NCBI RefSeq assembly: GCF_022965805.1
Contig: NC_133102.1
Location: 11,390,485-11,454,484 of the forward strand
DNA from: Primulina eburnea
Lineage: Eukaryota > Streptophyta > Magnoliopsida > Lamiales > Gesneriaceae
Direction of reading: 5' to 3'
DNA length: 64,000 nt
Positions 19,568 to 56,489 of the stretch are shown here, piece after piece. Positions within the stretch are counted from its first letter, which is position 1, and every line of letters begins with the position of its first letter. Below the pieces are notes generated by a model, which was not told the origin of the DNA, did not search any database, and worked only from the letters and a program-made list of their open reading frames with translations. Position numbers and translations under genes: made by a program.

Positions 19568-19813
19568 TTAATCTTTAAACCCTCTCATGTTATGCAGTTT
19601 TTAGAATATTTTGTTTGCTGGGTTCGGCTTGTGTAGACATGTTAATTTATAACTAAACTGAATTTTTTGAGCTGTCTGAATTGTAGAGAAATACAGTATT
19701 ATTGTTTCTTTTATGCATTGAAACGATGAACAATTCATAACTAGCTTCTTCATGAAATGAAGCCTCAGCCAGTTGCGGCTAACTAAATTCCAAAAAATTG
19801 CTCCACTTCTGAA

Positions 19814-28351: not shown

Positions 28352-31300
28352 TTATCTCTTTTTGCTAGTGGAGCATAAATATCGAAGCATATACTCGTTT
28401 GAGAAACAAGTATCGGACAGATCTGTATGCAACCGAGTAATTGCATTTTGCAATGTTCTAAGAGCAGGTCGCACGTTTGTGAAATTCTGCTGAATTACGG
28501 TGCCATGGAATTTGCACAGTTCCTAAAAAAAGTCAAAAAATGTCACAATTTGTTCTGCAATGCAAATTTCTGTTTCTTCATTTGCAAGATAAATATAGAT
28601 CGATTAATGGTAGCTTTTGTGTAACCTGGCACCATCTAAGAATGAACTCCAAATGTGGACAATTTTCCAGAAGATCTGCCAGTGCTTCCACTAATCTCTG
28701 CAAATATTTGGCAGGGACTGACGAGGCAACATCTGATATATCTGCTGGGGCGACTGTGAGAATACACTTCTTTATTAGGGTATCTTCGTTCATACGCAGG
28801 CTGAGAAATAATGCTCTTTTCGGCTGATCGTCTTTCAATGCATCATCAACTGCCTACCCACAAAAGATAGGCAGGGATCAGAAAAGTCAATGTTATGGGA
28901 GTATTTCAAAGGACCGACATGAATTGCAGTTGATTTTCAGTACAATATAAAGAAATGGGACTGAATTAGAGTGCAGATTAATCTACTAGTGAGCTTTTAA
29001 AGCCACTAAGAATTCTATCCAATTCATTTTGTAGGTTATCAAATTAAAACCAAGACGTTCAACTATATTTTGATGTTCAAACAATATTTCCTTAATAGAG
29101 CTCGATGATTAAGTTTGAACAAATCGAGCTTTTATCCAAACTAGCTTGAAGTTCATTTTTCCAAATCTTGAGATCAAACTTGAATGTTAAACTAACCTCA
29201 GGAGTGACATCCATGTCAAGATCCGTGGGGTCAAATATGAATGTATCATCCATAGAATACAGCAACACCCCTTCTGTTGTTGCTGCTGCCCAACTCCGGC
29301 CGGTTGGAGCAATTCTCAAGCATTTTGCTCTAATAACGGGTCTTCCATGGTTTGGCATCGAACCAGGTAAATCATACGCCAATCTATCTCGTGTTTGCTT
29401 ATCCACGCCTTCCTCTGTGTCACTATTATCATCATCAATCAAATCCAGTGGACCTGCTTCGGTCATATTTTTCGAGTTTAAGAAATCAAGAACCCCATCT
29501 AGTGATAAATTGTGTGTGATCTGGAACCTCCGCAACAGGACCTGATACGTTAATAAGAATTAAGTGTCATAATATGATATATATATATTTAATAGAAAGA
29601 GCTAACTCATGTCGTTTTGTTACAAATAATTTATCACAATCATGTTACTGAAAAACATAAAAGAAAATTGCAACAAAATATACTATTATCCTACAAAAGG
29701 TCCAGTAAAGCACATGGCTTGAATTAAAACTGACCTGGTCAGCTGCATCGTACATACAAACGTATTTACTATTTCCCCCAGCCAATATATAGCTACCATC
29801 AGAGGAATAACACAAAGTTGTGAAGTACTTTCCGGCACTTGAGTTTGCAGCTGACCTTCGATCTGTCATCAGACGCCCACCAGCAATGTCCCTACGCCCT
29901 TCAATTGTAAACATTTCCAAGCCTTGCATAGGATCCCAAAAATGAATTTGACCATCCAGCGTGCTACAAGCCATCTGTTTACCATCAGGACGATAAACAA
30001 CTGTAAGAACATCATGTGTATGATCAAATTTTTCGATTCCACCTTTTCCTTCGAAAATGTCCCACAGGCGAACAGTTTTATCCCACGAAGAGGAAGCCAA
30101 AATAGCCTGCAAGGTAACTAGGAAACTCTTAATACAGATTAATAACCAACAATCTATCTCGTTCTAAGCTCCAAAATGCAATCAAAGAACATTATATATG
30201 CACATCTGAAATTTAAGATTAATGATGATGTAAATGAATCGTGACAGATGACAAAAATGATAGATTAGAAAAAATGTCTTCCACAAAGAATTTACCTGAT
30301 TGGGAGAAAACATTAATCCATGAACAGGACCCTCGTGGCCGCTTAGAACTTCCAGTAGTCGTGCATCCTTCATGGACCAAACAAATATCTACAGGTATTT
30401 GCCAACTACCATTTTATCAGTAAAATATATGAAGTCATATGACTCGTATCATTGAAAATATCAAGTTCAAAAATAGGAGTTATCAAGACCTCAAATGAAT
30501 CGAGAGTTCCAGCACAAATGATGTCACCACTCTGATCTGATGTTAAAGAAACAAACTGCTTTGGTGTAGGGGTCACAAATATTTTAAAGTTGCGATAGCG
30601 GAACAGATCATATGCACGAACAGTCCCATCCAGAGATGCACTCAGGAGGCAATTCTTGCTAGCCATGAAATGCAGCGCAGTAACAGCATTATTGTGTTCA
30701 GAAAATGTGACAAAACAGAAGCCTGATGAAACAGTCCACACCTGTACCAACAACTTTTAAATTTCTGATTTATGTCGTGGAAATACCAGAAAATAACAAT
30801 ACACAAGACACTTTAAAAAATTTATATTAATGCCTTTGTCCTTGGGAAAAGTTTGATCTATATATAAAGAAATAGATACAAAGACACAATGGAGCACAAA
30901 TGTATAATCTGATTGGATTTCAGATCCATGCCTCAACAACACTACTCAGTTTGCAGGAGCAATTTGTGCTCCATTAACAACAACAACAAAATATAAATAA
31001 TTATAGTCAATTGGTTGTCTTACCAACAAAATGAAAAATAAATTGTGACGAGCTTGCCTTGATTTTGTTATCATCTGCTCCAGTAGCCAAGAGCTGCGAA
31101 TCTGATGAATAAGCAAGGCAATTGACATCAAAATAATGCCCTTGTTGCTTCAGTATATAGCTCTCTGATTTCCACTCCCACACAAGCAACTGACCAAGCT
31201 TGGCACACCCGAAGGTTAACCAATTTCCCAGGCCGTTGAATATAGCTGTAGTGATCTTCTCTCTCGAAACAGACAACAAATGGATGCACACAAAATCAGG

Positions 31301-32248
31301 CATGTGATATAGAGCAAAGACCCCATTAGAAAGCCCTACTACCACCATATCAAGCCCCCGATGATAATCGCACGATGTTACCTTTGCAGGAGCCTGCATT
31401 AGATAATCCTTTTTCATCAGTTCCCATTTCATTTTATCCAATAAAACCCCATTCCCTCCATCAAATTCATCGTCGTTCCCATCAGTTTCTTTCCTTTTCT
31501 TCAAAACTGTGTCATTCCCACTTGCCAAATTCTGCTCCTGCCTCTGCTCTGGTGTCCCTGGAGAATCCAGCTCTGCTTCACTAAACCCCCATCTAAAAAC
31601 CGCTCCATCCCGTGATAAGCTATAAACACTAGCTATTCCATTCGTTTTCTTATCCACTCCAAAGAATGCGCCCACAATGACATCCCTATGACCTAAAAAC
31701 AGAAACGGCTTCTTAGAGTCACTCTTCTTCACCTTTTTCAAACAAAAAAGTCTCAAAGTCAAATCTTTGGACCCAACAATTACGTAATCCGAGTCAGGAC
31801 TCCAATCCAGACACGTAATTATATCATTACAATCTGCAAATGTTCGAATCAACTCGAATGGAAAAAATTCCTTCTTAAAACCAGGAGACCGCCATATCTG
31901 GAGTAGCTTTCCCGCAGATACAGCTATGAATCTCCCGTCAGGGCTGAACTTCACAACGTATATTCGGTGTTTGAAAGATAGGCGATGAAGGACAACCCGG
32001 CGGGAGAGGTTTATAAAGAGGCAGCGGTTGTTCTCGTCGACGGTGAACACGAACACACCATCCGATGAGGCGGCGATGTGACGTAGGTTGGTGGAGGCCT
32101 GACAAGGGAGGGTTATGGTCTCGGATTTCAAGAGGTCTGTGACGGAGATTCGGTTACCAACCGGTGAGATGAGCAAGGTGTTGTTAACAACGACGACGTT
32201 TCCACCGCGGTAGGGAGCGCCAATTGGGTTTTGGAACCTGTAATTCAT
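28352..32248 (-). CDS. PWP2: PWP2/UTP1, WD40 protein of the small-subunit processome
   Basis: Seven exons on the minus strand: 32248-31058, 30741-30490, 30388-30296, 30106-29735, 29541-29197, 28853-28626 and 28522-28352. They join to 883 codons plus TAA, close to the usual length. The start MNYRFQNPIGAPYRGGN and repeated WD40 units (ITCLDWSPDSDYVIVGSKD, ASSSWDKTVRLWDI and others) match Periodic tryptophan protein 2. The last two exons form a Utp12-type C-terminal domain. PWP2 is a U3 snoRNP / UTP-B subunit needed for early 18S rRNA processing in the nucleolus. All six introns are in phase 0. Intron 1 starts with GC (AAG|GCAAGC), the others with GT. An acidic, charged insert lies at about residues 230-270. 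No damage is seen. Confidence 0.96.
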
Positions 32249-33025
32249 GTCCGACTCACTGAGGATTCAACGAATTTGGAAAGGGTTTATGCTCTTAAAC
32301 CCTAATCTCTCAGCTGCAGTTCAACACCAAAAAAAACAAAAAGCGTGCTTGTCAAAATGCGCCATTTAAAGATATTTTTTTTATATATATATATTTTAAA
32401 AAAAAACAAAAAAATTAACCAACTTAACGTAATGGTCTTTTCTCATTGCATGCTAAGTTGCTAACGAGGCTACGATATTCGCCGGTTGGTTCGATTCAGT
32501 TTACATAATTTTATTTCGATTTTTGGATTTTCAGGTTAAAAATATATAAATTGATATTTAAATTTTTTTTACTTCAATTAAATTTTATTTTAGTAATTTC
32601 GATTTTTGGATTTTCGGGTTAAAAATATATAAATTGATATTTTAATTGTTATACTTCAATTAGATTTGATTTTTACTAAACCGTCTGGTTGTTTCTATTG
32701 AACAATTATTTAAATTAGCAATTAAAGTATATTTTAAAATATGATATATTACGTTTTTAGTTAATTTTTTTAAAAAAAACCTCTAACTATTAACTTTAAA
32801 TTGTCACTTAATATCATTTTATAAAATGTATGATCTATATAAAGTTTGGTTTAACATTTTTATCCAAAATAAAAATATCGGTTTTGTATTTACTCTATAT
32901 GAATTTGCAATTTTTTTGGTTTAAACCAAGGTTTAACACATTTACTAAAGACTTGATTACAATCTTTTAATTGAGATCCTAAATCAATTCATATTCGAAC
33001 AAAAATGAGTTTTCAATATTCAATC
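32249..33025. other. AT-rich spacer upstream of PWP2
   Basis: The first 150 bp are the PWP2 leader and promoter side. The remainder is AT-rich with one tandem duplication (32513-32679). No gene is seen. Confidence 0.5.
32513..32679 (+). repeat. Two-copy tandem repeat, period 83 bp
   Basis: Both copies start ATTTCGATTTTTGGATTTTC (32513 and 32596) and share the following GGTTAAAAATATATAAATTG, with a few substitutions. Confidence 0.85.
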
Positions 33026-33260: not shown

Positions 33261-33269
33261 TTCTTAAAT
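33261..33269. repeat. Left 9-bp target duplication of the virus-bearing transposon
   Basis: TTCTTAAAT, identical to 41488-41496 and directly abutting the terminal GGGGAAATTG. Confidence 0.88.
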
Positions 33270-33407
33270 GGGGAAATTGTCAAAAACTCCCTATTTCCAT
33301 TCTCAACCTCCTCTTTACTCCCTACCCCATTAAAACTTTGTTTCAACTCCCCATATCCCTCAAATTTCCAAGTTTACCCTTATATATTTATTTTAAATAA
33401 TTGATTT
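33270..33407 (+). repeat. Left terminal inverted repeat
   Basis: About 138 bp, collinear with the inverse of 41351-41487 and with the direct sequence at 46574-46710. By eye roughly 60-65% of bases match, with conserved blocks at the outer end. Confidence 0.78.
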
Positions 33408-33671
33408 CTTTTTTGTAGTAAAAGGCCCATCATGCTTCCGTAAAATAAATTGAATCTTTTACCTTTTTGACTAGAGTACCACCGGGTTATATCCACCGTT
33501 TTTTACGAACTGCTCCTCACAGTCCAACCACACGATCGCAACCGATGGTTACTAAGCAGATTCCTTCAGCAATACTTAGCACAGCTCTAATTCGTTTCCT
33601 ACCTTAGAGCGTACAGCAAAAGATCAATTTTTGAAAATAATACATGATAGGGGCTAAGAGCAAAGATCTCT

Positions 33672-33699
33672 TTTATTCAAACACAAACATTTATTTATT
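33672..33699 (-). promoter_or_regulatory. Viral poly(A) signals
   Basis: Three AATAAA motifs on the minus strand (33699-33694, 33695-33690 and 33677-33672), about 130-155 bases beyond the predicted transcription start. Caulimovirids have their poly(A) signal just after the start, so that it is read twice in the terminally redundant RNA. Confidence 0.65.
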
Positions 33700-33850
33700 A
33701 CATAGTAACCTCCTGTAGAGGAGGAGAAACTTGTTTTAGCTACTTATCGTAGCTGAACTCTTGACACACATAAAACTTGAAAGAAAATATTACAACCTTG
33801 TATGAAAGAAATGGAGAAAATATTTGATGATCTTCACTTCCTTCTTTCTG

Positions 33851-33861
33851 CCTTATTTATA
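33851..33861 (-). promoter_or_regulatory. Viral pregenomic RNA promoter TATA box
   Basis: The minus strand reads TATAAATAAGG, followed by a purine-rich AGAAAGAAGGAAG segment, as in caulimovirid full-length promoters. The start of transcription should be near 33825. In this linear copy transcripts would run out through the left TIR. Confidence 0.65.
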
Positions 33862-33954
33862 GAAGGCTCCTTCGGATTTGAACTTCGGATTTCAAATCTT
33901 CATAAGCCTTTACAGCTTGCATTGGGGACCATTTGGTGGTTGAGGGGTCCCTGT

Positions 33955-34155
33955 CTAGATTATTAATCTTGACATCAACTTCTCATCCTCCTGTATCTCT
34001 TTTAGATACCATTGACGATGAGTTTCCAGGATATCGGCAGTAATTTCATCTTTTTTATACTCTTTGAAATGATTTACTAACCATTTAAGAGCTTCTGCCT
34101 CTTTCCTCTTGTATGTTATTCTTCTTTTCAAAACTTTCAAGTATACACGATACAT
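33955..34155 (-). CDS. Small basic viral frame after the transactivator
   Basis: This 66-codon frame is rich in Lys, Arg and Glu, with a predicted helical character (alternating charged and hydrophobic residues). It sits between the transactivator frame and the promoter, where most caulimovirids have only non-coding DNA. I do not recognise it. It could be a novel small protein or a chance frame overlapping promoter elements. Confidence 0.35.
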   Translation of the reverse strand: MYRVYLKVLKRRITYKRKEAEALKWLVNHFKEYKKDEITADILETHRQWYLKEIQEDEKLMSRLII

Positions 34156-34402
34156 TTTAAGTTTTGGTTCTGGTGTGTTAACTGGTTTCCTTTCTGTCCT
34201 TATTTATGGATGAATTTTCGGGACCAGTTAATTTACTTTTATTCATTGGATTCCTTTTAGATTGGTGTCCAATGCTTGCTGAGTCATCCACCATTTGTTA
34301 TTGATGGTCTATTTGTCTTTTACCACTAATTAGTGGTTGTCTTGTTTCTTCCACTCACATGGTAGTGGTCCTGCTTTTGTAGTGGAGGGTCACATGTCCC
34401 TT

Positions 34403-35749
34403 TTAATTTTGTCGAGGAATCTTTGGCTTTCGGCTTCCCCGAGGAAATCGTGAATGTGGTCCATCCCCACTTGTACTGGTTTCGGTAAAGTGTTTCCGAT
34501 CAGATCTCGGCTTGAATCCTTTACCAAATTCCGGTTCCTTCTGGTTTTGGCATTCTGGACAGATGTTTTCAGACCATCTTCCTACATGTGCCATATTACA
34601 GAATTTCCGACGAGTTTCTTTACTTGCCGGCAGCTTGCTATTCCACAAAAGATTTCTTTTCTTTTCAAATAGATCTTCTGCAAAACTTGTTGTTTTTCCT
34701 GTCATGGTATTTAACAGGAATGATCTGTTCCCTGAATGATTGTAGAATTTGAACGGAAACTTGACTTTGTCCATCTCAGTGAGACAGACCCAAATACCCC
34801 AAGCTCTTCTGGTAGAAATGTCATCTTCAGTTATTGAAGATACTAGGGGTGTTTCTTCTGTCGGAGGGTCCTTGATAAATTTCTGGATATTTGAATCTGG
34901 CCTCCTTAGCTTGATGAAATGAAAGGCTTCGTGAGAACCTTTCCCTGCTGGTTCTGGTGCTGCACTAAAGAAGTATAGCTCCAAAACATCTCCTCTGGAC
35001 AAATAATCATTGTTTGCCCAAGTCTCGTGAACAGCTTCCTGGATCCACTTTGGTAAACCTGAGATTTCCGGAAAGCTGGGTGATGTAGTATAAACTGAGG
35101 CAAGAGCCCCAAATTCATACCAAGCTTTAACCTCCTTGGGATATGAATTAGGTTTCATCCATACCCTTGGATATTTTCCTGAAACATCAACCCTATTTGT
35201 AGCTGGGTTAATGCCAATACGTGTTTTTAATTTCTCCCAATTCTGCTGATAAACCTGGAATGGAGAAATTACACCTTCATTAGTACCAACCTTAGCTTTG
35301 CCTTTGTCAATTCGAGGCCTAAGGTTGATCTCTCCCTCTTCAATCCCCGAGGTGAAGGGTTGACTTGAGGACTCAAGATAAGGATCAGGAGTCTCAATTT
35401 TTGTTTCAGCCGACTCATCTCGTGATGATCCCGACTTAACACTTGTGCAAGGGGTATTTGAATCCCCCGCTACAGGTATAGAGTCCTGTACTCGAAAACT
35501 CTCCATTTGAGAAACCAGTGGTCTCTCAATGCCCTGGAGGATAGGCCTTTGCGTTACAGACCATAACTGAGTATATGCCTGTAAACATCCTGTAATTCGA
35601 TCAGAGACAATTCTCTTATCAGCTTGTTGTAGCCTTCCCGCAACTTCTGCGTTAACAGCTAACTTGTTGAACTCGGTTTGAAGCATTTCAAGGTGTTCCC
35701 TCAAATGCCTCTGCATCTTGATAATAGCATCAATGTCAATGCTGTCCAT
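34403..35749 (-). CDS. Caulimovirid transactivator/viroplasmin-like protein (P6-type)
   Basis: A 448-codon frame in the last large position, the place of the inclusion-body/translation transactivator. It has an N-terminal helical segment, a Ser/Thr/Pro-rich linker, a central conserved block around residues 170-330 with WYEFG and EISGLPKWIQ, and a basic C-terminus containing a CNMAH...CPEC arrangement that may bind metal. P6-type proteins form virus factories and allow translation of polycistronic viral RNA. It overlaps the end of the RT frame by 14 bases and is intact. Assignment rests mainly on position and on the central block. Confidence 0.7.
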   Translation of the reverse strand: MDSIDIDAIIKMQRHLREHLEMLQTEFNKLAVNAEVAGRLQQADKRIVSDRITGCLQAYTQLWSVTQRPILQGIERPLVSQMESFRVQDSIPVAGDSNTPCTSVKSGSSRDESAETKIETPDPYLESSSQPFTSGIEEGEINLRPRIDKGKAKVGTNEGVISPFQVYQQNWEKLKTRIGINPATNRVDVSGKYPRVWMKPNSYPKEVKAWYEFGALASVYTTSPSFPEISGLPKWIQEAVHETWANNDYLSRGDVLELYFFSAAPEPAGKGSHEAFHFIKLRRPDSNIQKFIKDPPTEETPLVSSITEDDISTRRAWGIWVCLTEMDKVKFPFKFYNHSGNRSFLLNTMTGKTTSFAEDLFEKKRNLLWNSKLPASKETRRKFCNMAHVGRWSENICPECQNQKEPEFGKGFKPRSDRKHFTETSTSGDGPHSRFPRGSRKPKIPRQN

Positions 35750-37772
35750 CTCTTGTTAAAAAATCTGCAAGAATATTTTCATGAGATTTTATTATCATAA
35801 TATCAAAAATATAATTTTGACATAAAGCTTGCCATCGTAATAATCTAGCCTTCTCCGGTTTAGACTCAATTCTATTCCTCAAAAAGGCTTTAACTTGAGT
35901 GTTATCAACTTTCAAAGTGAATTTCTTTGCAAGTAAAAATAACGGCCATTTTTCAAAAGCCCTTTTTACTGCATAAAATTCCTTTTCGTTGATATGCCAT
36001 CTTATGGCTTCTGTGTCTGAGAATAACCCACTACAATATCTGCATGGTTGTTCTCCATCTGGTGTGAGCTTTGTTAATACTGCAGCCCACCAATGATCAC
36101 TGGCATCGGTATATAATACCAGATCATCCTCGTCTTGAGGAATAGCCATCTTTGGAAGATTTTTGCAAACCTTCTTTAAATGGATAAGTCCCTTTGTGTG
36201 TTCGTCTGTCCATATAAATCTAGCATCCTTTTTCAATAATGGACTGAACACCTTCCTGTGTTTTGCTAGGTTTTTAATAAACATCCCAGCAAAATTAACA
36301 ACCCCTAAAAAACTTTGAAGTTGTTTCTTGTCTTTGAGATTCTCTGGAAAATTCTGCACCTTTTCTACTATGTGTTCTTGCAGAATTATTCCTGATTCAT
36401 CGATTTCAATTCCGAGGAATTCAATCTTTCTTGTAGCAATGACTGCTTTCTTTTCAGATAAAACCAGTCCTTCTTTCTTGCAAACATTAGAGAAAATCTC
36501 CAAATGTTTAACATGTTCATTCATATCTTTGGATGCTATTAGAACATCGTCGATGTAAACAAACATAAACTTGAAATAATCTTTGAAAAGATTATCCATC
36601 TTTCTTTGAAATATTTGGGGTGAGTTAGCCAATCCCATTGGTAATACTTCCCAAATATAATGTCCTTGAGGTGTGGAGAAAGCTGTGAATTTCTTGCTTT
36701 CTTCCTGCATCCGAATCTGATAGAATCCAGACTTGCAATCAAATTTAGAGAATATCTTGGCATTGCGAATGCAACTAATCAAGTGTTCTCTACTAGGTAT
36801 AAAATACCCATCAAACTCCAGAATCTTATTAATTTCTTGATAATTAATAACCAATCTGGGTTTTCCTCGTTTAATTTCACCATGGTTTCTTACCAGAAAA
36901 CCTGGACTGCTATATGGTGACATACCTGCTTTGATTAATCCAAGGTCCAAATGTTCCTTGATTATAATCTGCATATCCCTCTGATCAATGATGTTCATTG
37001 GGATGGGTTTACAACGGACAAATTCATACTCTTTGCCTTCCTTGATCTTAAGGCAAGCCCTGAGTTGATTTCTGTCCCACCATGCCAAGGGATCTTCGTT
37101 ATAATTTTCTTTGATCCTCTTCTTGACATCTTCCAGTGATACCTTAGATTCAAACTCTACTTCATTTGTGTGTAGAGTTATCTTAAGGCATTCTATATCT
37201 TCTGGTTGGAGTTCCTTATCTGCTCTTAACTGGAGCATTGTTTCTCCAAACCGTCTTGAATCCTTCATTTTTGGGTTCAGAAGTTTTCCTGAATCACCAC
37301 GCTTGCTGCGAAACTGGATTGGCAATTTTCTGTAAAATGCCTCCCTAAGTCTCTGGACTATGATTTTGTGGGCACATGGTGTTGTGAACACTAATCTTCT
37401 AGTCTCATTTTCTTGTGTATAGGACTTGAACATTTGTAGGAAATTATTTCCTAACAATATGTCAGCTCCTGTATCATGAAAATAAATTGGTGGTGTCTTT
37501 ACCTTGTACCAAGGTGTTTGTCCAGCACCGCCAATCATGATTTCAGTCATCTTAATCCCTTTACATAAGATTAAGATTCTTCTGGAAAAATCTCTTCCAG
37601 CAATCTTGGGTAACTCTTCTTCCAAATTATTTGGAAAAACTCCTCGTTTTGCTGTACATATTCCAGCACCTGAATCAATATATGCAGCAAAGTATTCTGC
37701 CTTATATTGTTCATACAACATTCCTACTGGAATGTATATGGAGAATGGACTTGTGGTAATTGGATTTTCCAC
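35736..37772 (-). CDS. Caulimovirid protease-reverse transcriptase-RNase H polyprotein
   Basis: A 678-codon intact frame. The N-terminal aspartic protease has a DSG site at residues 33-35 and an ILLGNNFL C-terminal strand near 105-112. Reverse transcriptase follows, with FSKFDCKSGFYQI near 341-353 and YIDD at 406-409. RNase H begins near residue 545 with LYTDAS. The layout is that of the caulimovirid pol frame, which lacks integrase, and no integrase is present. It overlaps the movement-protein frame by 49 bases. The enzyme would convert the terminally redundant RNA to DNA in the cytoplasm. No frameshift or stop is visible. Confidence 0.93.
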   Translation of the reverse strand: MENPITTSPFSIYIPVGMLYEQYKAEYFAAYIDSGAGICTAKRGVFPNNLEEELPKIAGRDFSRRILILCKGIKMTEIMIGGAGQTPWYKVKTPPIYFHDTGADILLGNNFLQMFKSYTQENETRRLVFTTPCAHKIIVQRLREAFYRKLPIQFRSKRGDSGKLLNPKMKDSRRFGETMLQLRADKELQPEDIECLKITLHTNEVEFESKVSLEDVKKRIKENYNEDPLAWWDRNQLRACLKIKEGKEYEFVRCKPIPMNIIDQRDMQIIIKEHLDLGLIKAGMSPYSSPGFLVRNHGEIKRGKPRLVINYQEINKILEFDGYFIPSREHLISCIRNAKIFSKFDCKSGFYQIRMQEESKKFTAFSTPQGHYIWEVLPMGLANSPQIFQRKMDNLFKDYFKFMFVYIDDVLIASKDMNEHVKHLEIFSNVCKKEGLVLSEKKAVIATRKIEFLGIEIDESGIILQEHIVEKVQNFPENLKDKKQLQSFLGVVNFAGMFIKNLAKHRKVFSPLLKKDARFIWTDEHTKGLIHLKKVCKNLPKMAIPQDEDDLVLYTDASDHWWAAVLTKLTPDGEQPCRYCSGLFSDTEAIRWHINEKEFYAVKRAFEKWPLFLLAKKFTLKVDNTQVKAFLRNRIESKPEKARLLRWQALCQNYIFDIMIIKSHENILADFLTRDGQH

Positions 37773-38992
37773 ATTTTATCTTCTGCCATAAACTCCATTC
37801 CATACTCTAGACGTTTCCAAGGTTTATGTTCCTCGAGAAACTCTAGCCCAAGAATCAATCGTTCTGATTCTTTTCCTGGAATTCCTTGAATATGAACCTC
37901 CAATTCTCCGATATTAATCAGTCCTTGGTAAGTTCCTATCATCGGTTGTTCCAAATAGTATATTGAATTACAAGGAAATTGATTCCTTTGTTTTGTAATA
38001 TCAAATACTATTTCTACTTCCTTCCAACCTTCTGGGCATCTGAGTTTTCCTATTGTAGAAAAACTTTTCAACTCCTGTTGGGTTTCTATGACAGGCCTTT
38101 TATCCCATCTGTAACTTGTAATTCTATCTCCTTGAAAAGATAGTCTTCTTGGTTCCAGTCTAAGACTTTGATTTCTCTGTAGAATCGGTTTGTCTTGGAT
38201 CTGGATATCTGTTTCCTGTATTAAAGGAAACTCAATTCTTTCTGGATAAATTGCCTGCGCAACTTTTCCAAATATCTCAGGTATTTCAATAAACTCGTTT
38301 CTAATAAACAATTCAGAATGATGTGTATTAGATAGAGCATATGAAATCTGATAGGTAATAGAATATGGTCTATTGCCTTCCTTCATCAACCTTTTTTCCT
38401 TGAAGTTCTGATGTAATGTCAAGGCTCGGCTGAAATCTCGATCTGCCAGGTTGTAGGCTATCCTTGGATAGATTACTCCTACAATTTTTCCTGCACAGAG
38501 GTTTCCTGAGATTGTTCCCAGTACTGAATCTTGTAGATTCCCCATTCTTTTATCGCATATGGCGATATCAATTGGTGAATCTATCCCTTCTTTGAAAGTA
38601 GCCTTTATCATAATCTGGATTGCTCCTATATGAATCCAGGACATAGTCCTTGCTACTTCTATCTTGAGTTTTTGTAATTCCTCCTTTATTTCTTCGGAAG
38701 GAATTAACTGCATCTCCATTTTATTTCCTGTAAGTTCCATTGGGATTGCCATTTCCCTTCTAGAAACTTTATAGATTAGATGATGCTTTCTGTTTCTTAG
38801 GCCAAGACTTCCTAAGAACTTTTCTACCTGTCCTGCAGAGAAACCTTGATATCTCTGTAGACTCGGATTTTCTCTCATGATTCTTTGAACCATGTTATGA
38901 GATATTGTTGTCTGGCTAAAAAACCCAGACAAATCTTCATGTGTTTCGTGTCGAAACACCTCGTCTTCAGTCAGATTCCGATTCTGTTCCAT
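37724..38992 (-). CDS. Caulimovirid movement protein (30K type) with extra C-terminal domain
   Basis: A 422-codon intact frame. Residues about 95-235 carry 30K-superfamily features: MSWIHIGAIQIMIKATF, a central IAICDKRMGNLQDSVLG and a conserved segment around NLADRDFSRALTL. Such proteins form or line tubules through plasmodesmata. The remaining 170 residues contain a beta-rich stretch with LILGLEFLEEHKPW, somewhat like the C-terminal part of a retropepsin. The frame lies between coat protein and polymerase, whereas the caulimovirid genomes I know place movement protein upstream of coat protein. It overlaps the coat frame by 26 bases and the RT frame by 49. Confidence 0.8.
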   Translation of the reverse strand: MEQNRNLTEDEVFRHETHEDLSGFFSQTTISHNMVQRIMRENPSLQRYQGFSAGQVEKFLGSLGLRNRKHHLIYKVSRREMAIPMELTGNKMEMQLIPSEEIKEELQKLKIEVARTMSWIHIGAIQIMIKATFKEGIDSPIDIAICDKRMGNLQDSVLGTISGNLCAGKIVGVIYPRIAYNLADRDFSRALTLHQNFKEKRLMKEGNRPYSITYQISYALSNTHHSELFIRNEFIEIPEIFGKVAQAIYPERIEFPLIQETDIQIQDKPILQRNQSLRLEPRRLSFQGDRITSYRWDKRPVIETQQELKSFSTIGKLRCPEGWKEVEIVFDITKQRNQFPCNSIYYLEQPMIGTYQGLINIGELEVHIQGIPGKESERLILGLEFLEEHKPWKRLEYGMEFMAEDKMWKIQLPQVHSPYTFQ

Positions 38993-40409
38993 CAGATTCT
39001 TCCTGACTTAAGACTTCCTCTTCTTCATATATACTCTCATCTGAGGCAATGTCCTCAAATTGGTATACTTGAATGAGATCTTGGTAATAAACTGCTTCTT
39101 CAATATCCGGAGTAGGATCAAAACGTTTAATACCTCTTTTCTCATTTTCTGGACAATTGGTCGAGATATGACCTCTTGCTCCACATGTCCAGCAATTACA
39201 ATCCCTGAAACTTTCATTGGCTCTAGTATGAGCTCTTCTGAAAGTTTTCTTTGTAGGTGTTCTTCCTGTGCTTCGAGATGAACTTGATGCCTGGGATGAT
39301 ATCCTACTTCTTGATGGTCCGCTTCTTTGTCCAGATTTATAAGATCTGGCTTTCTGTCTAGACCATACGGTTCTTGGTTTCCAAGAACTTCTTCCACTTC
39401 GTGCATAAGGATGAGTCCTAAAACTTTTCCTTTTATGTTTCTGTGGTTTACTTCCAATAATTGTTGGAAGATCATTTTCCTTACAACACAAAGGAGTTCT
39501 TTTGTTGATACCCCTTAGTCGTTTGTAATTCTTTTGTAATGCTGCCATGTGACACCATTCTGCTAATTTCCCTTTAAGGAAAGAGGCTCTTCTTGCCAAT
39601 GTATCTGGATTACCAGGTACGTATTCCCCTATGAGCATTTCTCTCCACGGGCTTGGCATTTTTGCGAAGAAAAGCTGCATAGCTATATCTTCTTCGACTC
39701 CTGAATTCCATCTATATTTGGTGAATAACATAATGTATTCATCTACCAAACATATATCATGTAATTCAAGACTATACAGAGCTTGCGTATATTTTTTCTT
39801 TTTCTCTGTATCTTGACTATTGAAATAGTCTACCCCTATAAAGTGTGCTTTGAATAGGGTAGCCATTTTTCCCGCGATCTCACTAAGAGATTCTCCAACT
39901 AGGACTGACTCTTTCATGTCTGCTGAAGTCATGTCCCAAGCAATTTTTACTGATCCCATAAGACTCATTTCCAAAAGTTTAATGAATCCTTCTTTGTTGA
40001 GATCAAGTGTTCCTGCTGCAATTCTCATAGCAGATGTCCAATCGTCTATGAGATCTTCTCTGTTTTTGAAGTCCAATACATCAAGGTTAAGCATAACCCC
40101 GTAAGGATGTATAGGATCTAAAACAGTTTTCCCATAGGGTGTTTGGTGCAAAGGGATTTGAGTTCTCCTTGCCCTTGTTCCCGCTGGGTGTGCTCCTCCA
40201 CCAGTATGGAAATCAGTCTGAGATTCCCTCATATTTATATTATGAGATCCCATACTTTCCCTTGGTGGTTCCTGGGAAGATGACCAGGTTATTGCAGGTG
40301 GTGTTTCACCTACTGCTGTATTCATCTTTAGATCTACAACTTTGAGATTTGCGAAAGATTCCGCAAGCTCTTGTAGATCCTCCAAACCAATCCTTTCTAG
40401 AGTTGTCAT
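38967..40409 (-). CDS. Caulimovirid coat protein
   Basis: A 480-codon intact frame. It has a structured central region (residues about 110-300), a Lys/Arg/Ser-rich basic tract (about 310-395), a zinc knuckle CWTCGARGHISTNC at 406-419 and a strongly acidic C-terminus. This basic-knuckle-acidic arrangement is characteristic of caulimovirid capsid proteins. Its ATG overlaps the stop of the preceding frame by one base (TGATG), suggesting coupled translation. The N-terminal part is repeated in copy 2 at 47546-47902. Confidence 0.9.
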   Translation of the reverse strand: MTTLERIGLEDLQELAESFANLKVVDLKMNTAVGETPPAITWSSSQEPPRESMGSHNINMRESQTDFHTGGGAHPAGTRARRTQIPLHQTPYGKTVLDPIHPYGVMLNLDVLDFKNREDLIDDWTSAMRIAAGTLDLNKEGFIKLLEMSLMGSVKIAWDMTSADMKESVLVGESLSEIAGKMATLFKAHFIGVDYFNSQDTEKKKKYTQALYSLELHDICLVDEYIMLFTKYRWNSGVEEDIAMQLFFAKMPSPWREMLIGEYVPGNPDTLARRASFLKGKLAEWCHMAALQKNYKRLRGINKRTPLCCKENDLPTIIGSKPQKHKRKSFRTHPYARSGRSSWKPRTVWSRQKARSYKSGQRSGPSRSRISSQASSSSRSTGRTPTKKTFRRAHTRANESFRDCNCWTCGARGHISTNCPENEKRGIKRFDPTPDIEEAVYYQDLIQVYQFEDIASDESIYEEEEVLSQEESDGTESESD

Positions 40410-40780
40410 CAGATTAATTTCTTTTCTGAGACAGATTTGATTAGATTGATCATCTTTTCTTCTTCAGTTAAAGGTTTTGACACCACTCTGGCCTTCCCTT
40501 GTTGATGTAACAAAGGTTCGGTACCAAAGGATGGTGGTAACCAGCCTCCTGAAGTTCTTCTACTAGAACTTGGTTGTTGTTCTAGTTTCTGTATTCTTGT
40601 TTGAATATCCTTTAAGATCTCAAGAATTTCTTCTTGTTTCTCTAGGACCTTTTCAATCCTTTGAGGTACATAATATAGCATATTGCCATAATTTTGTACC
40701 GTTTTCTGTATTTCTCTAAGATCCAGAGAGAGCTTAGAGGAGTCTGGTACTATCTCCAGAAATTTATTATTCTGAATCAT
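40409..40780 (-). CDS. Small viral protein with coiled coil (virion-associated-like)
   Basis: 123 codons. Residues about 15-65 form heptad-like repeats (MLYYVPQRIEKVLEKQEEIL, ILKDIQTRIQKLEQQ), then a Pro/Ser/Gly-rich part and a charged end. Caulimovirid virion-associated proteins and badnavirus ORF2 proteins have a similar coiled coil plus nucleic-acid-binding tail and sit just before the coat gene in some genera. The function is inferred from this likeness. Confidence 0.6.
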   Translation of the reverse strand: MIQNNKFLEIVPDSSKLSLDLREIQKTVQNYGNMLYYVPQRIEKVLEKQEEILEILKDIQTRIQKLEQQPSSSRRTSGGWLPPSFGTEPLLHQQGKARVVSKPLTEEEKMINLIKSVSEKKLI

Positions 40781-40827
40781 AAATTTTTACCTGAGGGTGC
40801 TGTTGCTTCCCTTCGTAGATCTTCTGT

Positions 40828-41025
40828 TTATACAGATCCATTGTTCTCTGAAGAATTTCTTCTGAGTAAAATTTGAAGTATGTTTTTACGGTTCTTTAAA
40901 CCTTGTAAACGCATACCTTTCGTTCTGAGTTCAGTGAAGCATGTACTTCGCTGTAATTCTTGTTCTAATTGAATTATTTCTAGGGAAATAAGTTCAATTT
41001 CGAGCTGGATGGTAGTCCCTGGCAT
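40828..41025 (-). CDS. Small viral frame, helical
   Basis: 65 codons, starting two bases after the stop of the 81-codon frame. It is rich in Leu, Ile, Gln and Glu with coiled-coil character (ISLEIIQLEQELQ) and a basic second half. I do not recognise the family. Its tight spacing suggests it is translated. Confidence 0.5.
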   Translation of the reverse strand: MPGTTIQLEIELISLEIIQLEQELQRSTCFTELRTKGMRLQGLKNRKNILQILLRRNSSENNGSV

Positions 41026-41027
41026 AT

Positions 41028-41273
41028 TTAACAGATCATTGGAGATCTGGTCTTTTCGGCCTGTAAGAGTCTACCTTTTGTGTATGCAAGGTTTTGCAAA
41101 CACTGCTGTCTAACATCAGGAGATAAATTTCCTTTGTTCTCCTGCTTCTGATATCTAACAATAGTTAGATAAACTTGTGTATATTCCAAAATATTGGAAT
41201 AGTTCTTGTAAATTATTCTCATCGAACTAAAGTTCGGATTCATAATTTTTTCGAAATTCTCCTTCTCATACAT
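41028..41273 (-). CDS. First small viral frame
   Basis: 81 codons, about 50 bases after the primer site. Tyr- and Asn-rich at first, later basic. No domain is recognised. The corresponding region of copy 2 has lost most of it through a deletion of about 0.33 kb. Confidence 0.45.
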   Translation of the reverse strand: MYEKENFEKIMNPNFSSMRIIYKNYSNILEYTQVYLTIVRYQKQENKGNLSPDVRQQCLQNLAYTKGRLLQAEKTRSPMIC

Positions 41274-41322
41274 TTAATTACTAGTAATAATAAAATTTTC
41301 GTGTTTGAAATAAATTAACCAT

Positions 41323-41334
41323 GCTCTGATACCA
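41323..41334 (-). other. Viral primer binding site (tRNA-Met)
   Basis: The minus strand reads TGGTATCAGAGC followed by ATGG, the caulimovirid minus-strand primer site. It lies about 17 bases inside the right TIR, so the viral genome is linearised at its primer-site gap. Confidence 0.92.
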
Positions 41335-41350
41335 TTTGGAGAAGCGCGGA

Positions 41351-41487
41351 GGATCAATTAAAGAAAATAGAGAATAAGGGTAGTTTTGTCAATTCTATAG
41401 GTTTAGGGAGTTAAAAGAGAGTTTTTGATGGCTAGGGAGTTAGGAACAAGTTAAGTTTGGGTTTAGGGATTTAGGAGCAATTTTCCC
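41351..41487 (-). repeat. Right terminal inverted repeat
   Basis: About 137 bp. Its reverse complement closely matches 46574-46710 (GCTC.TAAATCCC.AAACCCAA, CCGCGCTT before the primer site) and, less closely, 33270-33407. Confidence 0.82.
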
Positions 41488-41496
41488 TTCTTAAAT
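41488..41496. repeat. Right 9-bp target duplication
   Basis: TTCTTAAAT, the second copy of 33261-33269, directly after the terminal CCC. Confidence 0.88.
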
Positions 41497-46440: not shown

Positions 46441-46726
46441 AGTTATTTAATTAGACAAGTTAGTAATCTATTAATTTAAAAATCTATTTTTACCCTACAT
46501 TGACTTCATATTAGCCATAATTTTTTTAAATATTAATTTAAATAATAATAAAATAAATTAAACGTTTATATATGGGTAAATTGCTCATAAATCCCCAAAC
46601 CCAAAATCAACTTTACCCAAACTCCCTACACATCAAAAACTTTCTTTAAACTCCTTAATACCTTAAAATAGACAAAAATATCCTTATTCCTATTTTTAGT
46701 TTAATTGATTCACCGCGCTTTCAAAA

Positions 46727-46949
46727 TGGTATCAGAGCTTATAAAAAGCCCCGAACCTCTATCGTGTGATATGACACAAAGCACGACTCTCCGTAGGGGA
46801 TAACCTAGGCTCTTCTACAGAGTTTGAGGTTAGCAAACTGATAGGTATCTTTGTGGGTGTCACCTCGTCATTGATCATATGATCCCTCATCTCCTTATCC
46901 AAAAGCCGGAGCTCTGAGTTGAGGCACTGTACACAAATGGTATCAGAGC
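46727..46949 (+). repeat. Duplicated viral primer site with a 199-bp spacer
   Basis: TGGTATCAGAGC occurs at 46727-46738 and again at 46938-46949, each after a run of A. Copy 1 has only one, which matches the second in downstream context and the first in upstream context. The spacer has no clear frame. Confidence 0.85.
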
Positions 46950-47170
46950 GAAATGTTAATTTAATTCAAATACAAATTTTATTATTACTAGTAACTAATT
47001 GTATGAGAAGGAGAATTTTGAAAAAATTATGAATCCGAACTTAAGTTCGAGAAAAATAATTTACAAGATATATTCCAATACTTTGGAATATACACAAGTT
47101 TATCTAACTATTATTATATATCAGAAGCAGAAAGGGACGCAACGGCACCCTCAGTTAAAATTTCAGGTAT

Positions 47171-47519
47171 ACTTATAATTCAAGAAAATAAGTTTCTGGA
47201 GATAGTACCAGACTCCTCTAAGCTCTCTTTAGATCTTAGAGAAATCCAGAAAACAGTACAAAATTATGGCAACATCCTATATTTTGTACCCCAACGAGTT
47301 GAAGAAATCCTTAAAAACCAGGAAGAAATTCTTGGAATATTAAAGGATATTCAAACAAGAATTCAGAAACTAGAACAACAACCAAGTTCTAGTAAAAGAA
47401 CTTCAGGAGGTTGGTTACCACCATCATTTGGTACTGAACCCTCGTTACACCAACAAAGAAAAGCTAGAGTGGTGTCAAAACCTTTGACTGAAGAAGAAAA
47501 CATGATCAATCTAATTTAA
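47171..47519 (+). pseudogene. Remnant of the viral coiled-coil frame (copy 2)
   Basis: Corresponds to 40780-40409 of copy 1 (FLEIVPDSSKLSLDL, IQKLEQQPSSS) with base changes. An early stop replaces part of the end. Upstream, about 335 bp present in copy 1 are deleted, joining the first small frame to this one. Confidence 0.75.
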
Positions 47520-47545
47520 TCTATCTCAGAAAATAAATTTATCTG

Positions 47546-47902
47546 ATGACAACTTTAGAAAGGATTGGTTATGTCTTGCGGAATCTTTCGCCAATCTCAA
47601 AAGTTGTAGATCTAAAGATGAACACAGCAGGAGGAGAAATACCTGCTATAACCTGGTCATCTACTCAGGAACCACCAAGGGAAAGTGTGGGATCTCAAAA
47701 TGCTAACATGAGAGAATCCCAATCAGATTTCCATACTGGTGGAGGATCACACCCAGCGGGTGCAAGGACAAGGAAAAGTCAAATTCCCTTGCACCAAACA
47801 CCCTACGGGAAAAATGTTTTAGATCCGATACATCCTTACGGGATTATGCTTAACCTTGATGTATTAGATTTTAAAAACAGAGAAGATCTCATACACGACT
47901 GG
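47546..47902 (+). pseudogene. Viral coat protein N-terminus (copy 2), interrupted
   Basis: About 119 codons matching the first 126 of the coat frame in copy 1, with a small deletion near codon 10. It ends at DLIHDW, where an LTR begins at 47903. Non-functional. Confidence 0.85.
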
Positions 47903-48380
47903 TGATAAGTGCAATTTATTGTACTTTTATTAATTGTTTTTAACTTGGAATTTTGTGATTCTTGAGCAGGTTTTATGTGAATTGTTGTTGTAGTTTGGAA
48001 GCTTAGAATGAGAATTTGGAGTAGTAAATTGTTTAATTGGAAAGTGCAAAAGATAAAAAAGGCCAAAGCTCCAGCGCACCCGCGCTAACAAAAAGACCGC
48101 ACCCGCGGTCAATGTTCAAGAATTTTTTCCGAAGCTGTACCGCACCCGCGGTCACTGAATTTCGAAGATGGAAGTTTTCCCCGAAACATCAGCGCACCCG
48201 CGGTGCCATCTTTACCGCACCCGCGGTCTTTGACAGACAAAGTCCGGAAATTCTGAAATTTGGTGTGATGCGCATGGGAGTTGATGACTTTTGTGTTTTG
48301 CGTGCAAAGACTTGTCTAGGACTATAAAAGGCTTCTATTATTCACTATCTAGGGTATTGGGGATCCAAGGGAAGAGTAGT
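47903..48380 (+). repeat. LTR fragment of a further retroelement (element 4)
   Basis: It begins TGATAAGTGCAATTTATTG, a common plant LTR start, directly in the coat sequence. It has a TATA box TATAAAAG at 48323-48330 and five CGCACCCGCGGT-like units at 48075-48227. It is cut at 48380 by element 5. The rest is not in the window, so its class is not certain. Confidence 0.65.
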
Positions 48381-49924
48381 TGTAAGACCGTGTATCGTAT
48401 TATCATAAATCATGTGTGATTATCGATAATTAATGAAATTGTCATGTGATTATGTATTTGATGTATATCGTGACAAGGAATTGAGAATTGAATATTGAAT
48501 ATGAATTGACGTTGTAAGAGCTCGAGTGGAGAGGCTGGACGCTAATTTAGTACAAACATTAAAATTTGTACAGAACGAGTGGCGCCGGGCGGTAGAAAAT
48601 GACCGCCCGAGCGCCAAGGTAGAAATTATGTATGTTTGGGCAGAACATGCCGCGCCCGAGCGGTAATGTTTGACCGCCCGAGCGCGGTGCAATTGACACT
48701 CGGGGACAGAATGTCTCGCGCTCGGGCGCGAGAATTCTACCGCCCGAGCGCGAGAGCGGTGGAAAGATAAGAATGAAATTGCTGTTCGATTTCTTCATTT
48801 CATTTACGTAGCTTCGAGAGAGAACGAGAGCTTCTGATTTTCTTTCGTCCAAATCGACTTCGAAACGCCGTCTAAACGCGAAACAAATTATATATTTGTG
48901 ATCGTCGCGTCGAGGGCTTCAGACTGAGGTAATTTTCTTCCGGTTCCAGCAGCTCTAAATATCAAAGTGCTGGAATAGCATGTATTTGAAGTTGAATTTC
49001 GGATATGTAATAGCATAACTGACAAGAAACTTATAATCGAAGTCGGAATTGAATTATGATATGATTTTGATTTGATATGAATTTTTGAAGTTTCAAATGA
49101 TATTTGAAACTCATATTAATTATTTTGGAGTATGTTATTGATTGAAATGAGTATTTTATTGATGTAGATAAAGTATTATACCGATATCTTCAGGCTACAT
49201 CAATTGGAACGAAGAATTGAGGTATGTTACGACCGGGTAACATACGACATGTATCTGTATTATATGATATATGATTGGATTGATTGGATTGGAATACGTG
49301 TCTATGTGCCTATTTGATGATTTGATGTGGCATACATAACATTGAGATTTGAGTATCGATGTATAAAATAAATGTTTTGTTAACACACATTATTTGATGC
49401 ATACATCGATACATGACATACACCTTGAGCTATGATCCTTGGATACCTTGATATGATTGGATTGGATTCCGGGGTTTGTGAACACAATTGCTATGTTGGT
49501 ATTATATGACCCGTAAAACATAGACATTTATGGCCCCATATGATTGGATATGAGATGTGGAATTTGATGGCGCTTTGCCGACGCTATCATACGTGTATTC
49601 CCATATCGGCCGGTGTGCCAGCTCGAGCATTGATTTGATAGCGATTCGATTGATTCTGACATGTGCTCAGTGGATGGGCATTTGACTTGATACCTCCACG
49701 ACATACATGCATTGCATACCATATATCATTGTTTAGATATTTGTGGTATATATGATTGGTTGTTCCATACATAGCTTTGCTCACCCCCAAGGGGGGCTGT
49801 TGTTGTCGTGTGGACAATGGCAGGTACTCTAGGATATCAGGAGACCGGAGAGGGTACTTCTAGAGGGAGCCACAGCTTGGGCTGAGGTTTTATTTTTATG
49901 TTTATGTCTTGTTCCCAGTATATA
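48381..49924 (+). repeat. 5' LTR of element 5, first piece
   Basis: It begins TGTAAGACCGTGTATCG and matches 63474-64000 for its first 530 bases. GC-rich inverted repeats occupy 48580-48765, including a perfect 14-bp pair CTCGCGCTCGGGCG / CGCCCGAGCGCGAG at 48715-48728 and 48741-48754. Confidence 0.92.
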
Positions 49925-51852
49925 TGTCACACCCTTACTCTATACTTGACATGATTAATGATACTTATATTTGTAATCAAAATAAGGTTTGAATGATATA
50001 ACTATAGTATGAAGTAAATCAAACAAGAGGCATCACTTTGATGGTCTATAAAAATTTTGGCATGATGTCCCTATATTTTGTATACACCAAAACTCAAGAA
50101 ATACTATTCATACACATTTATAAACATATTCTCATATACCAACATACTTTGTATCATCATACATAACATGGAACTTGTTTCAAACCCTCATATAAAATTT
50201 ACTACAATACATATGCGGAAGCTATACAATAAGAAGTCCCGGTTCTTGTCGAGGTAGGGCACGTCACAAGCATCCATTGGCGAACCGGCATCCTATGTCT
50301 GTTCACTACCTGATCCTGTAACCCATGAGCTACGTGAGTTTATAAAACTCAATAAGTTGGCACTTGTACGTATCAATATGCGTCGAAAGAATATACATAT
50401 CAAGTCGTGACAACAATGAAACTTTAAACCATGTCATATCATAGCATATATTCATGTTCATTTTTGTACTTGAGCCTCATTAGTTGACCTGTACTACTGC
50501 GCTTGCTTTATTATATAGCTACTACTGTGTTGGACGTCAGGGAGCAACCTTTGGCAACCCCACGCCCCATGAACATATATTGGCCAATAGCTTTGGTGGA
50601 CTTAAAACCACCCATGATGTCAACAAGCTCTATATCATGTAAATCAGTCCTTTTTCTTTCAATGTTCATGTTCATGTTCATAACATATCACCCATCATCA
50701 ATATTCATGAGTTCCTTACATATTTAATACATAACAGTGGAATATGGTGCTATGTTTTCATCAATAAGATACTAACAATGTACATATAACAATAATCAAT
50801 GAGAAGTATTTGAAATCATAATATTACTCATGTATTACTTCAAGAACATGCCAACTTACAGTCCAATCGTACGAATACGTGTTTGAGACGATGTATTCAG
50901 TTACTATTGTTTAGACTAGGTGAAAATCACTCCTCTACATGTAGGACAACTAAAAGAGAAGAAAGCTTACACTTCTATGATGTTCTTGTGATGGAGAACT
51001 AAGATCTATCTTCAAATTGATGAAGGAAAGGAAGAAGAGAGCTTTTGGAGGAAGAGTTTCTTGGTTTACTTCGAGCTTTTGCTGATAAAGGAGGGGAAGA
51101 ACTAAAGAAATGATTCAGAAAGTCGAAACTTATCTTCTTATATGCAAGGCGGCGCTCGGGCGGTCATAAATTACCGCTCGAGCGCGGAACTTTCTGTCCG
51201 AAACAAAAATTCCAGAACCATTGGCGCTCGGGCGGTAATTTCTTACCGCTCGGGCGCCACCTATTCTGCTTCTGTGCACTTCTTCATTAACGATCGCTCC
51301 AGAAACGTCTCTTCCGTTCATAATCTGGAAAAGTGCTAAACTAGGAAGTTGTAGCTCTATGTCTTGGCTTGAATCTCCCACTGGTTTCATGTCATTTGGA
51401 GGTCTGAGTAAAAATTTATGACCATTCTCCCAACATGTGTCATTGTAGGAGTGACGATACACACAACCCACTTCGGGGCGCTTTTGGCTTGTCTTCCACA
51501 ATGATTTGGACAAAACTCAAAATTAGAAAGTTGTAACCTTATATCTTAGCTTTCTAATGGTTATGGCCTCACACAATTTGGATCAATACTCAAATGATTA
51601 TGCTAAAACTCGTACGAACTACCATATTTTCATCTCATTTCCCACCACTTCTATTACACTATTTCTACGTACCCATCTTACTATCACTATTTAGACATAT
51701 TATCAATCTCAAAACACCATGAACAATATAAGAATCATGTTCAATCTAATATCGATACCTGAATCATCACGTGGAATCTAACGAGCTAAATAACTACATA
51801 ATAAACGACATAAACGCATTATTATCATTTGTACGAGTAACCGGGCAGTACA
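49925..51852 (-). repeat. 3' LTR of element 6
   Basis: 1928 bp with ends TGTCACACCC / GTACA on the plus strand. GC-rich inverted repeats lie at 51150-51262, for example GGCGCTCGGGCGGTAA at 51223 with its near-inverse at 51243-51258. Confidence 0.93.
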
Positions 51853-51865
51853 ATTCTCCCCTCCT

Positions 51866-54501: not shown

Positions 54502-54510
54502 CTCCGATAA

Positions 54511-56483: not shown

Positions 56484-56489
56484 TAAAAA

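What the first reader, a model, noticed from the sequence alone, without database searches (positions are those of the whole stretch)
33261..41496. A complete pararetrovirus packaged between Mutator-like inverted termini
Seen: a full caulimovirid genome of about 7.9 kb fills the space between inverted termini (GGGGAAATTG at 33270; GGGAAAATTG on the reverse strand from 41487) that stay collinear for about 138 bp, with a perfect 9-bp direct repeat TTCTTAAAT touching both ends. Known: Mutator-like elements make 8-10 bp duplications and often have long TIRs starting in G; endogenous pararetroviruses have no integrase and usually insert without TSD. Inference: a DNA transposon carries a whole virus as cargo and could spread it by cut-and-paste, which would make it a virus-transposon hybrid.
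Basis: partly seen in the sequence, partly recalled or inferred. Interest (0 to 1): 0.95.

Follow-up and report, generated by a model that had tools for sequence, protein, structure and literature searches.

The report
Plant virus carrying jumping-gene ends
In a plant genome, a family of DNA copies of a reverse-transcribing plant virus sits between the two ends of a DNA transposon and has inserted at many separate sites like a jumping gene, which suggests how a virus without an integration enzyme can get into chromosomes.

Summary
At 33270-41487 a caulimovirid gene set (coat protein, movement protein, protease-RT-RNase H, transactivator-like protein) and primer site lie between two ~137-bp inverted termini (69% identical), abutted by a perfect 9-bp duplication. 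It is not a single oddity. The host assembly (812 Mb) gave 40 scored left and 40 scored right ends (capped lists). Thirty pair up, 21 of them at 8.20-8.22 kb; 26 of 30 have a perfect 9-bp duplication, against 7 of 870 in mismatched pairings. Three older copies located at both ends also show it.
The virus is not just dead cargo. RT differences between TIR-bearing lineages show dN/dS 0.08-0.10. Variants shared among copies are mostly silent (10 N: 28 S), private ones are not (60:33).
Best reading: these pararetroviruses carry Mutator-type ends in their replicating genome, and a host MULE transposase inserts them in trans. The enzyme is inferred: MULE transposases abound, but none of four loci examined has matching ends. 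I found no published precedent in the searches made; Teratorn in fish is the nearest analogue.

The parts
33261..33269 (.). left target-site duplication TTCTTAAAT
33270..33406 (+). left terminal inverted repeat (TIR-L)
   Evidence: 69% identity to TIR-R over 137 columns; 40 scored matches at 96-100% in the host genome
33684..33689 (-). AATAAA, putative viral poly(A) signal
   Evidence: read by eye; inference
33854..33861 (-). TATAAATA, putative viral promoter TATA box
   Evidence: read by eye; inference
34403..35755 (-). ORF4, transactivator/viroplasmin-like protein (450 aa)
   Evidence: fold match to caulimovirid transactivators, (model pLDDT 57)
35736..37775 (-). Pol: protease A3, reverse transcriptase, RNase H; no integrase domain found
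37724..39007 (-). movement protein
   Evidence: PF01107, E 6.5e-32
38967..40463 (-). coat protein with zinc knuckle
   Evidence: PF22909 26.8 bits against a cut-off of 27; zf-CCHC 18.6 against 20.8
41323..41334 (-). primer binding site TGGTATCAGAGC (recalled as tRNA-iMet type), next to the inner end of TIR-R
41353..41487 (-). right terminal inverted repeat (TIR-R)
41488..41496 (.). right target-site duplication TTCTTAAAT
46574..46710 (+). TIR-R of a second, older copy in opposite orientation (83% to TIR-R of copy 1); its other end lies outside the window and was not found
46727..46949 (+). second copy: primer site, ~196-bp segment, second primer site
46934..47902 (+). second copy: leader and start of coat protein gene (85-90% to copy 1), then interrupted by unrelated DNA

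Best explanation
This is a lineage of plant pararetroviruses (Caulimoviridae) whose genome carries the two ends of a Mutator-like DNA transposon, placed just upstream of the tRNA primer site where the circular viral genome would be opened. Shown: precise ends, 9-bp duplications at dispersed sites, and purifying selection on viral genes in lineages that carry the ends. Inferred: the virus replicates through an RNA stage with its own reverse transcriptase, the ends being copied as part of its circular DNA, and a host Mutator-like transposase acting in trans recognises the ends and inserts the unit into AT-rich sites. The transposase thus stands in for the integrase the virus lacks. Excision and circularisation by the same enzyme could return a copy to the replicating pool; this step is a guess.
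For: Ends and TSD: 26 of 30 paired copies perfect, three more with one mismatch, one with none found; null 7 of 870. Four further copies located at both ends, three of them of the older lineage, also show 9-bp repeats, read by eye. The 14-bp flanks printed for the 30 copies differ from site to site. Inside: 20 of 20 left-end loci and 30 of 30 right-end loci tested are viral, with the primer site in 30 of 30 (all found with TIR queries); six of six further older right ends are viral too. Selection: Pol, window against three older TIR-bearing copies, dN/dS 0.091, 0.100, 0.078 at dS 0.24-0.27. Within the young group, variants shared by at least 2 of 21 rows 10 N: 28 S, private 60: 33, P 9e-5; CP and ORF4 parts pooled 22:41 against 37:23, P 0.004, neither significant alone. 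Fusion older than the lineage split: same-arm identity between lineages is 85-88%, left against right about 70% in both. Mosaic sub-lineage with a switch ~450 bp from the left end. MULE transposase genes abundant.
Against: No MULE with matching TIRs was found; only four transposase loci were looked at, of 150 scored and 865 candidates. No transposase or integrase domain in the element. No episome, transcript or excision was observed. A pattern search for head-to-tail end junctions found none, while its reversed control found 12 and 11. In a linear insert the putative promoter would read out through TIR-L, so a full-length RNA needs a circle or a promoter in the other end, neither shown. Left and right termini are only ~70% alike. 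TIR-less relatives in the genome were not searched for.
Confidence: 0.7

Rival explanations
1. Passive cargo: a MULE captured one viral genome (a giant Pack-MULE) and has since multiplied it only by DNA transposition, the viral genes being dead weight.
For: Ends, TSD and dispersed copies are as expected of a non-autonomous MULE; an internal-deletion derivative and a 262-bp foldback exist.
Against: dN/dS 0.08-0.10 in RT between TIR-bearing lineages; shared variants depleted of amino-acid changes while private ones are not; 15 of 20 fetched copies have no in-frame stop in Pol, though two of these 15 carry a gap.
Confidence: 0.15
2. The virus replicates without TIRs, and linear viral DNA is captured again and again by related MULEs at the primer-site gap.
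For: The junction lies next to the primer site, where viral DNA has a discontinuity (discontinuity recalled).
Against: The same left and right arms, each 85-88% alike between lineages, in the same places would need repeated identical captures. The 50 end loci checked are TIR-bounded, but they were found with TIR queries, so TIR-less copies are not excluded.
Confidence: 0.08
3. An integrase other than a MULE transposase (for example from an LTR retrotransposon) inserts the element, and the inverted ends are coincidence or a leader hairpin.
For: A review names retrotransposon-mediated capture as a hypothesis for caulimovirids (PMC10377300 section 3.1).
Against: 9-bp duplications and long TIRs are Mutator features (7-12 bp TSD, long TIRs: PMC10741241 passages); no excess of G-U-compatible differences between the arms.
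Confidence: 0.05
4. Break-repair insertion, segmental duplication or assembly artefact.
For: A usual view of endogenous caulimovirids is filler DNA in break repair (PMC13308828 passages).
Against: Same ends and 9-bp TSD at sites with different flanks.
Confidence: 0.02

Closest known systems
Teratorn (piggyBac transposon fused with a fish alloherpesvirus)
   Same: A virus joined to the ends of a cut-and-paste DNA transposon that multiplies in host genomes (PMC10175614 abstract and recombination section; PMC6431247 passages).
   Different: Teratorn is a 41-182 kb element from a DNA virus, with an active transposase; here a reverse-transcribing virus of ~8 kb carries only the ends.
Endogenous caulimovirids / pararetroviruses (ECVs, EPRVs)
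   Same: Gene content and primer site.
   Different: The integration mechanism of known ECVs is called speculative; they often lie by (TA)n repeats or in tandem arrays (PMC10377300 section 3.1). Here there are precise ends and a TSD.
Mutator-like elements and Pack-MULEs
   Same: Long TIRs starting in G, 9-bp TSD, AT-rich targets.
   Different: No transposase gene; the interior is a whole virus under purifying selection rather than captured gene fragments.
LTR retrotransposons / retroviruses
   Same: Reverse transcriptase and a chromosomal copy.
   Different: No long direct repeats in the element region (longest family 33 nt), no integrase domain, 9-bp TSD.

Membership tests
Caulimoviridae | protease A3, RT, RNase H polyprotein | tested here: met
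Caulimoviridae | movement protein, zinc-knuckle coat protein, transactivator | tested here: met
   (MP strong; coat domain and zinc knuckle just under curated cut-offs); for transactivator, on a low-confidence model
Caulimoviridae | tRNA-Met primer binding site | tested here: met
   (30 of 30 right-end loci); tRNA type recalled
Caulimoviridae | circular episomal dsDNA genome | not testable with these tools
   no reads or circle data
Mutator-like element (MULE) | TSD of 7-12 bp | tested here: met
   26 of 30 perfect 9 bp; range from PMC10741241 passages
Mutator-like element (MULE) | long TIRs | tested here: met
   ~137 bp but 69% identical
Mutator-like element (MULE) | encodes a MULE transposase | tested here: not met
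   the element could only be non-autonomous
Mutator-like element (MULE) | TIRs match an autonomous MULE in the genome | tested here: inconclusive
   four transposase loci examined of 150 scored
Teratorn-type fusion | virus bounded by transposon TIRs and TSDs | tested here: met
Teratorn-type fusion | transposase gene inside the element | tested here: not met
LTR retrotransposon | long terminal direct repeats and integrase | tested here: not met

The most novel reading that the evidence does not exclude
A pararetrovirus lineage in this plant, and perhaps in other Lamiales where relatives of its proteins occur, has evolved a regular proviral stage: its replicating genome carries Mutator ends, and a host transposase acts in trans as its integrase, so that reverse transcription and DNA-transposon integration are joined in one life cycle.
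Probability: 0.65. Interest if true: 0.97.

Novelty: categorically new. Interest (0 to 1): 0.93.

Why it matters
How integrase-less caulimovirids enter and multiply in plant chromosomes is called speculative or unknown in two reviews (PMC10377300 section 3.1; PMC10175614 recombination section). Here one lineage leaves precise, testable marks of a mechanism. It also crosses the line between reverse-transcribing and cut-and-paste elements, and would be a second kind of virus-transposon fusion beside Teratorn, this time with a borrowed enzyme.

Tried and rejected
Leader-hairpin reading of the TIRs: not supported. G-U-compatible differences between arms are not in excess over the other transitions (7 against 10 in the window copy, 3 against 10 in the C7 copy).

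Foreign cargo in an older copy (L112): my notebook entry called it non-viral. One search shows an internal deletion from primer site to Pol.

Unrelated insert in copy 2: the ~196-bp segment gave 35 matches from 34 candidates. All 8 sampled follow a primer-like site; in 7 of 8 the bases before it resemble the inner end of TIR-R (L147 is the exception), and 5 of 8 have an exact second primer site. It looks like a viral leader variant.

Autonomous partner: 5.2 kb around each of four MULE transposase loci, no virus-like terminus; the true ends of those MULEs were not all found, and L155 holds masked N's. TIR-pattern census of the genome: not completed. Head-to-tail junctions: none; reversed-pattern control 12 and 11. 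IMG/VR relatives: none by Pol or by TIR plus primer-site pattern. Left ends of older copies: 12 of 13 guessed places missed, copy 2 of the window among them; two (C8, C15) were then found with corrected places. Three of six older Pol pieces did not match. Empty-site test: flanks joined but not searched, being too AT-rich.
Full report
What was checked. The window is plant nuclear DNA. The host genome held for it has 812,487,562 bases in 1224 contigs, the window being C2:11390485-11454484. A protein record named Primulina eburnea lies on a contig of 41,820,699 bases, exactly the length of contig C5 here, so I infer that the host is Primulina eburnea (Gesneriaceae, Lamiales). Of 924 protein relatives of the viral Pol, the best 120 were listed; those that bear a name are from Sesamum and two from Centaurea solstitialis. 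Those of the 92 relatives of ORF4 that bear a name are from Lamiales: Sesamum, Salvia, Perilla, Phtheirospermum, Phlomoides, Dorcoceras and Primulina. Whether those plants have TIR-bounded copies could not be tested.

Anatomy. From left to right on the + strand: TSD TTCTTAAAT (33261-33269); TIR-L from 33270; ~1 kb of viral intergenic DNA with a TATA-like and a poly(A)-like signal on the - strand (read by eye); then, all on the - strand, ORF4, Pol, movement protein and coat protein; the primer site TGGTATCAGAGC (41323-41334, - strand); TIR-R ending at 41487; TSD again (41488-41496). The primer site sits close to TIR-R and the putative promoter near TIR-L, as if a circular caulimovirid genome had been opened just upstream of its primer site. 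Pol has protease A3, RT and RNase H and no integrase domain. ORF4 has no Pfam match above cut-off. Nothing in the PDB reached that level. So no transposase was found in the element.

A second copy in the window. At 46574, in the opposite orientation, another copy begins with the same terminus (83% to TIR-R), primer site, leader and coat-protein start (85-90%), and is then interrupted at 47902. Its other end was not found.

The family in the genome. TIR-L as query gave 40 scored matches (187 first-look candidates) at 96-100%; TIR-R gave 40 (162 candidates). Both lists are capped and favour young copies. Thirty left ends pair with a right end within 25 kb: 21 at 8.20-8.22 kb, two shorter (7994 and 6477) and seven longer. 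Among these 30, 26 have a perfect 9-bp direct repeat at the ends, three have one mismatch (one of them over 10 bp), and one has none by the script; pairing the left flank of one copy with the right flank of another gives 7 of 870. The 26 repeats are 94% A+T. Ten left ends and ten right ends stayed unpaired and were not tested for TSD. The 14-bp flanks printed for the 30 copies differ. A 500-bp flank comparison gave one match of 82% over 159 bp among the eleven plus-strand left ends; for the nine minus-strand loci that comparison took element instead of flank. All 20 left-end loci and all 30 right-end loci tested have viral DNA inside, and all 30 right ends have the primer site; two of the 30 lack the coat-protein match, and one has the extra leader segment.

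Older lineages. The copy-2 terminus gave 41 matches (170 candidates, 40 scored), mostly 87-96% identical. Six of these right ends were fetched for their interior and all six are viral. For three older-lineage copies both ends could be located: C7 (TTATATTAT on both sides, with one extra G next to the left end), C8 (AAAAAAATA) and C15 (TTAAAATAT), read by eye from the printed letters. A lineage-1 copy on C18 with the extra leader segment also has one (TTTTTATAA). Twelve of 13 first guesses at left ends missed. Between window and C7, left arms are 115 of 135 identical and right arms 117 of 133, while left against right is 95 of 135 in the window and 94 of 134 in C7. So the two arms had already diverged from each other before these viral lineages split.

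Selection. Pol of the window against the three older-lineage pieces that could be aligned gives dN/dS 0.091, 0.100 and 0.078 at dS 0.27, 0.24 and 0.26; three other fetched pieces did not match. These three are the C7, C15 and C8 copies that carry both TIRs and a TSD; the last two have one and two in-frame stops and the first has a deletion, as expected of old inserts. Among the window and 20 young copies (of 29 other paired ones), variants shared by two or more rows are 10 nonsynonymous to 28 synonymous, private ones 60 to 33 including 5 stops (Fisher P 9e-5); chance would give 2.4-3.3 to 1. Parts of CP (27 rows, three loci dropped) and ORF4 (20 rows) point the same way: 22:41 against 37:23 pooled, P 0.004; each alone is not significant (P 0.055 and 0.10). 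Shared variants may include repeated hits at the same base; these would push the ratio towards neutrality, not away. The reading is that the multiplying lineage kept working viral genes and that copies decay after insertion. A captured passenger moved only by a transposase would not show this.

Recombination. One sub-lineage is 99-100% identical to the window over the first ~450 bp at the left end, 82-99% from there to 34770, and 96-100% in Pol. This mosaic fits template switching between viral RNAs, but gene conversion is not excluded.

What inserts it. A 9-bp duplication with long TIRs fits Mutator-like elements (TSD of 7-12 bp, TIRs sometimes over 300 bp: passages of PMC10741241; a G at the start is recalled). 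The genome holds many MULE transposase domains (150 scored, 865 candidates; many in open frames of 700-800 aa). Four of these loci were examined, and none shows a terminus like the viral TIRs within 5.2 kb. The link to a host MULE transposase is therefore an inference from the ends and TSD, not a match to a partner element. No tandem end-to-end junction was found, so nothing here shows circles directly.

Literature. Searches on pararetrovirus or caulimovirid terms together with Mutator, MULE, transposase, TIR or TSD terms returned no listed paper that from its title and abstract start describes such an element: 1 of 1 listed; 1 of 1; 6 of 6; 15 of 3,359; 8 of 8; 6 of 6; 10 of 51. The library holds open-licence PMC papers only. 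[quoted passage not shown] A 2026 paper on caulimovirid origins (two passages) keeps the filler-DNA view, and its main text has no occurrence of transposase, target site or inverted repeat. A 2022 genome-wide survey has none of those terms either (term search only). The Teratorn review calls that element the first fusion of a cut-and-paste transposon and a DNA virus and says that the integration and propagation of endogenous pararetroviruses is unexplained (section read).

Verdict. The hybrid is real, multi-copy and TSD-bounded (confidence about 0.97). A MULE-type transposase as the inserting enzyme is likely (about 0.85). TIRs as part of a replicating viral genome is the best reading of the selection data (about 0.7). 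I rate it categorically new because it is neither a known type of endogenous pararetrovirus, nor a Pack-MULE, nor Teratorn with its own transposase; a reader who counts all virus-transposon fusions as one kind would call it a new variant.

Noticed in passing
46739-46934; also L144-L151 and L062: A ~196-bp segment after the primer site, often followed by a second primer site, in the leader of some copies of both lineages; 35 matches in the genome, all 8 sampled after a primer-like site. Possibly a viral leader variant exchanged at the primer site.
   Followed up: partly
L111 (C18:26565404-26565665): 262-bp foldback made of two right-type TIRs, MITE-like, without an evident TSD by eye.
   Followed up: partly
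L112/L143 (C15:3427321 onwards): Internal-deletion derivative: TIR-R and primer site joined directly to Pol.
   Followed up: partly
L152 and the list: Sixteen MULE transposase loci share the same score (114.9 bits) and an open frame of 776 aa, a sign of a recent burst; the one examined shows no end like the viral TIRs.
   Followed up: partly
17133-17723 and 18885-19476: Large inverted repeat (97-99% alike, 1.16 kb between the arms) with ORFs on both strands, one with a Myb/SANT-like match just below the cut-off; an unidentified TIR element or foldback.
   Followed up: no
47903-64000: Second viral copy is cut by other repeats: unidentified DNA from 47903 and an LTR pair at 48381 and 63474 (98.7% identical over 527 bases).
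   Followed up: partly
31007-32266: Open frame matching periodic tryptophan protein 2 (PWP2), 419 aa, apparently a partial gene copy.
   Followed up: partly
19787-20509: DUF1644 gene (E 1.9e-60).
   Followed up: no
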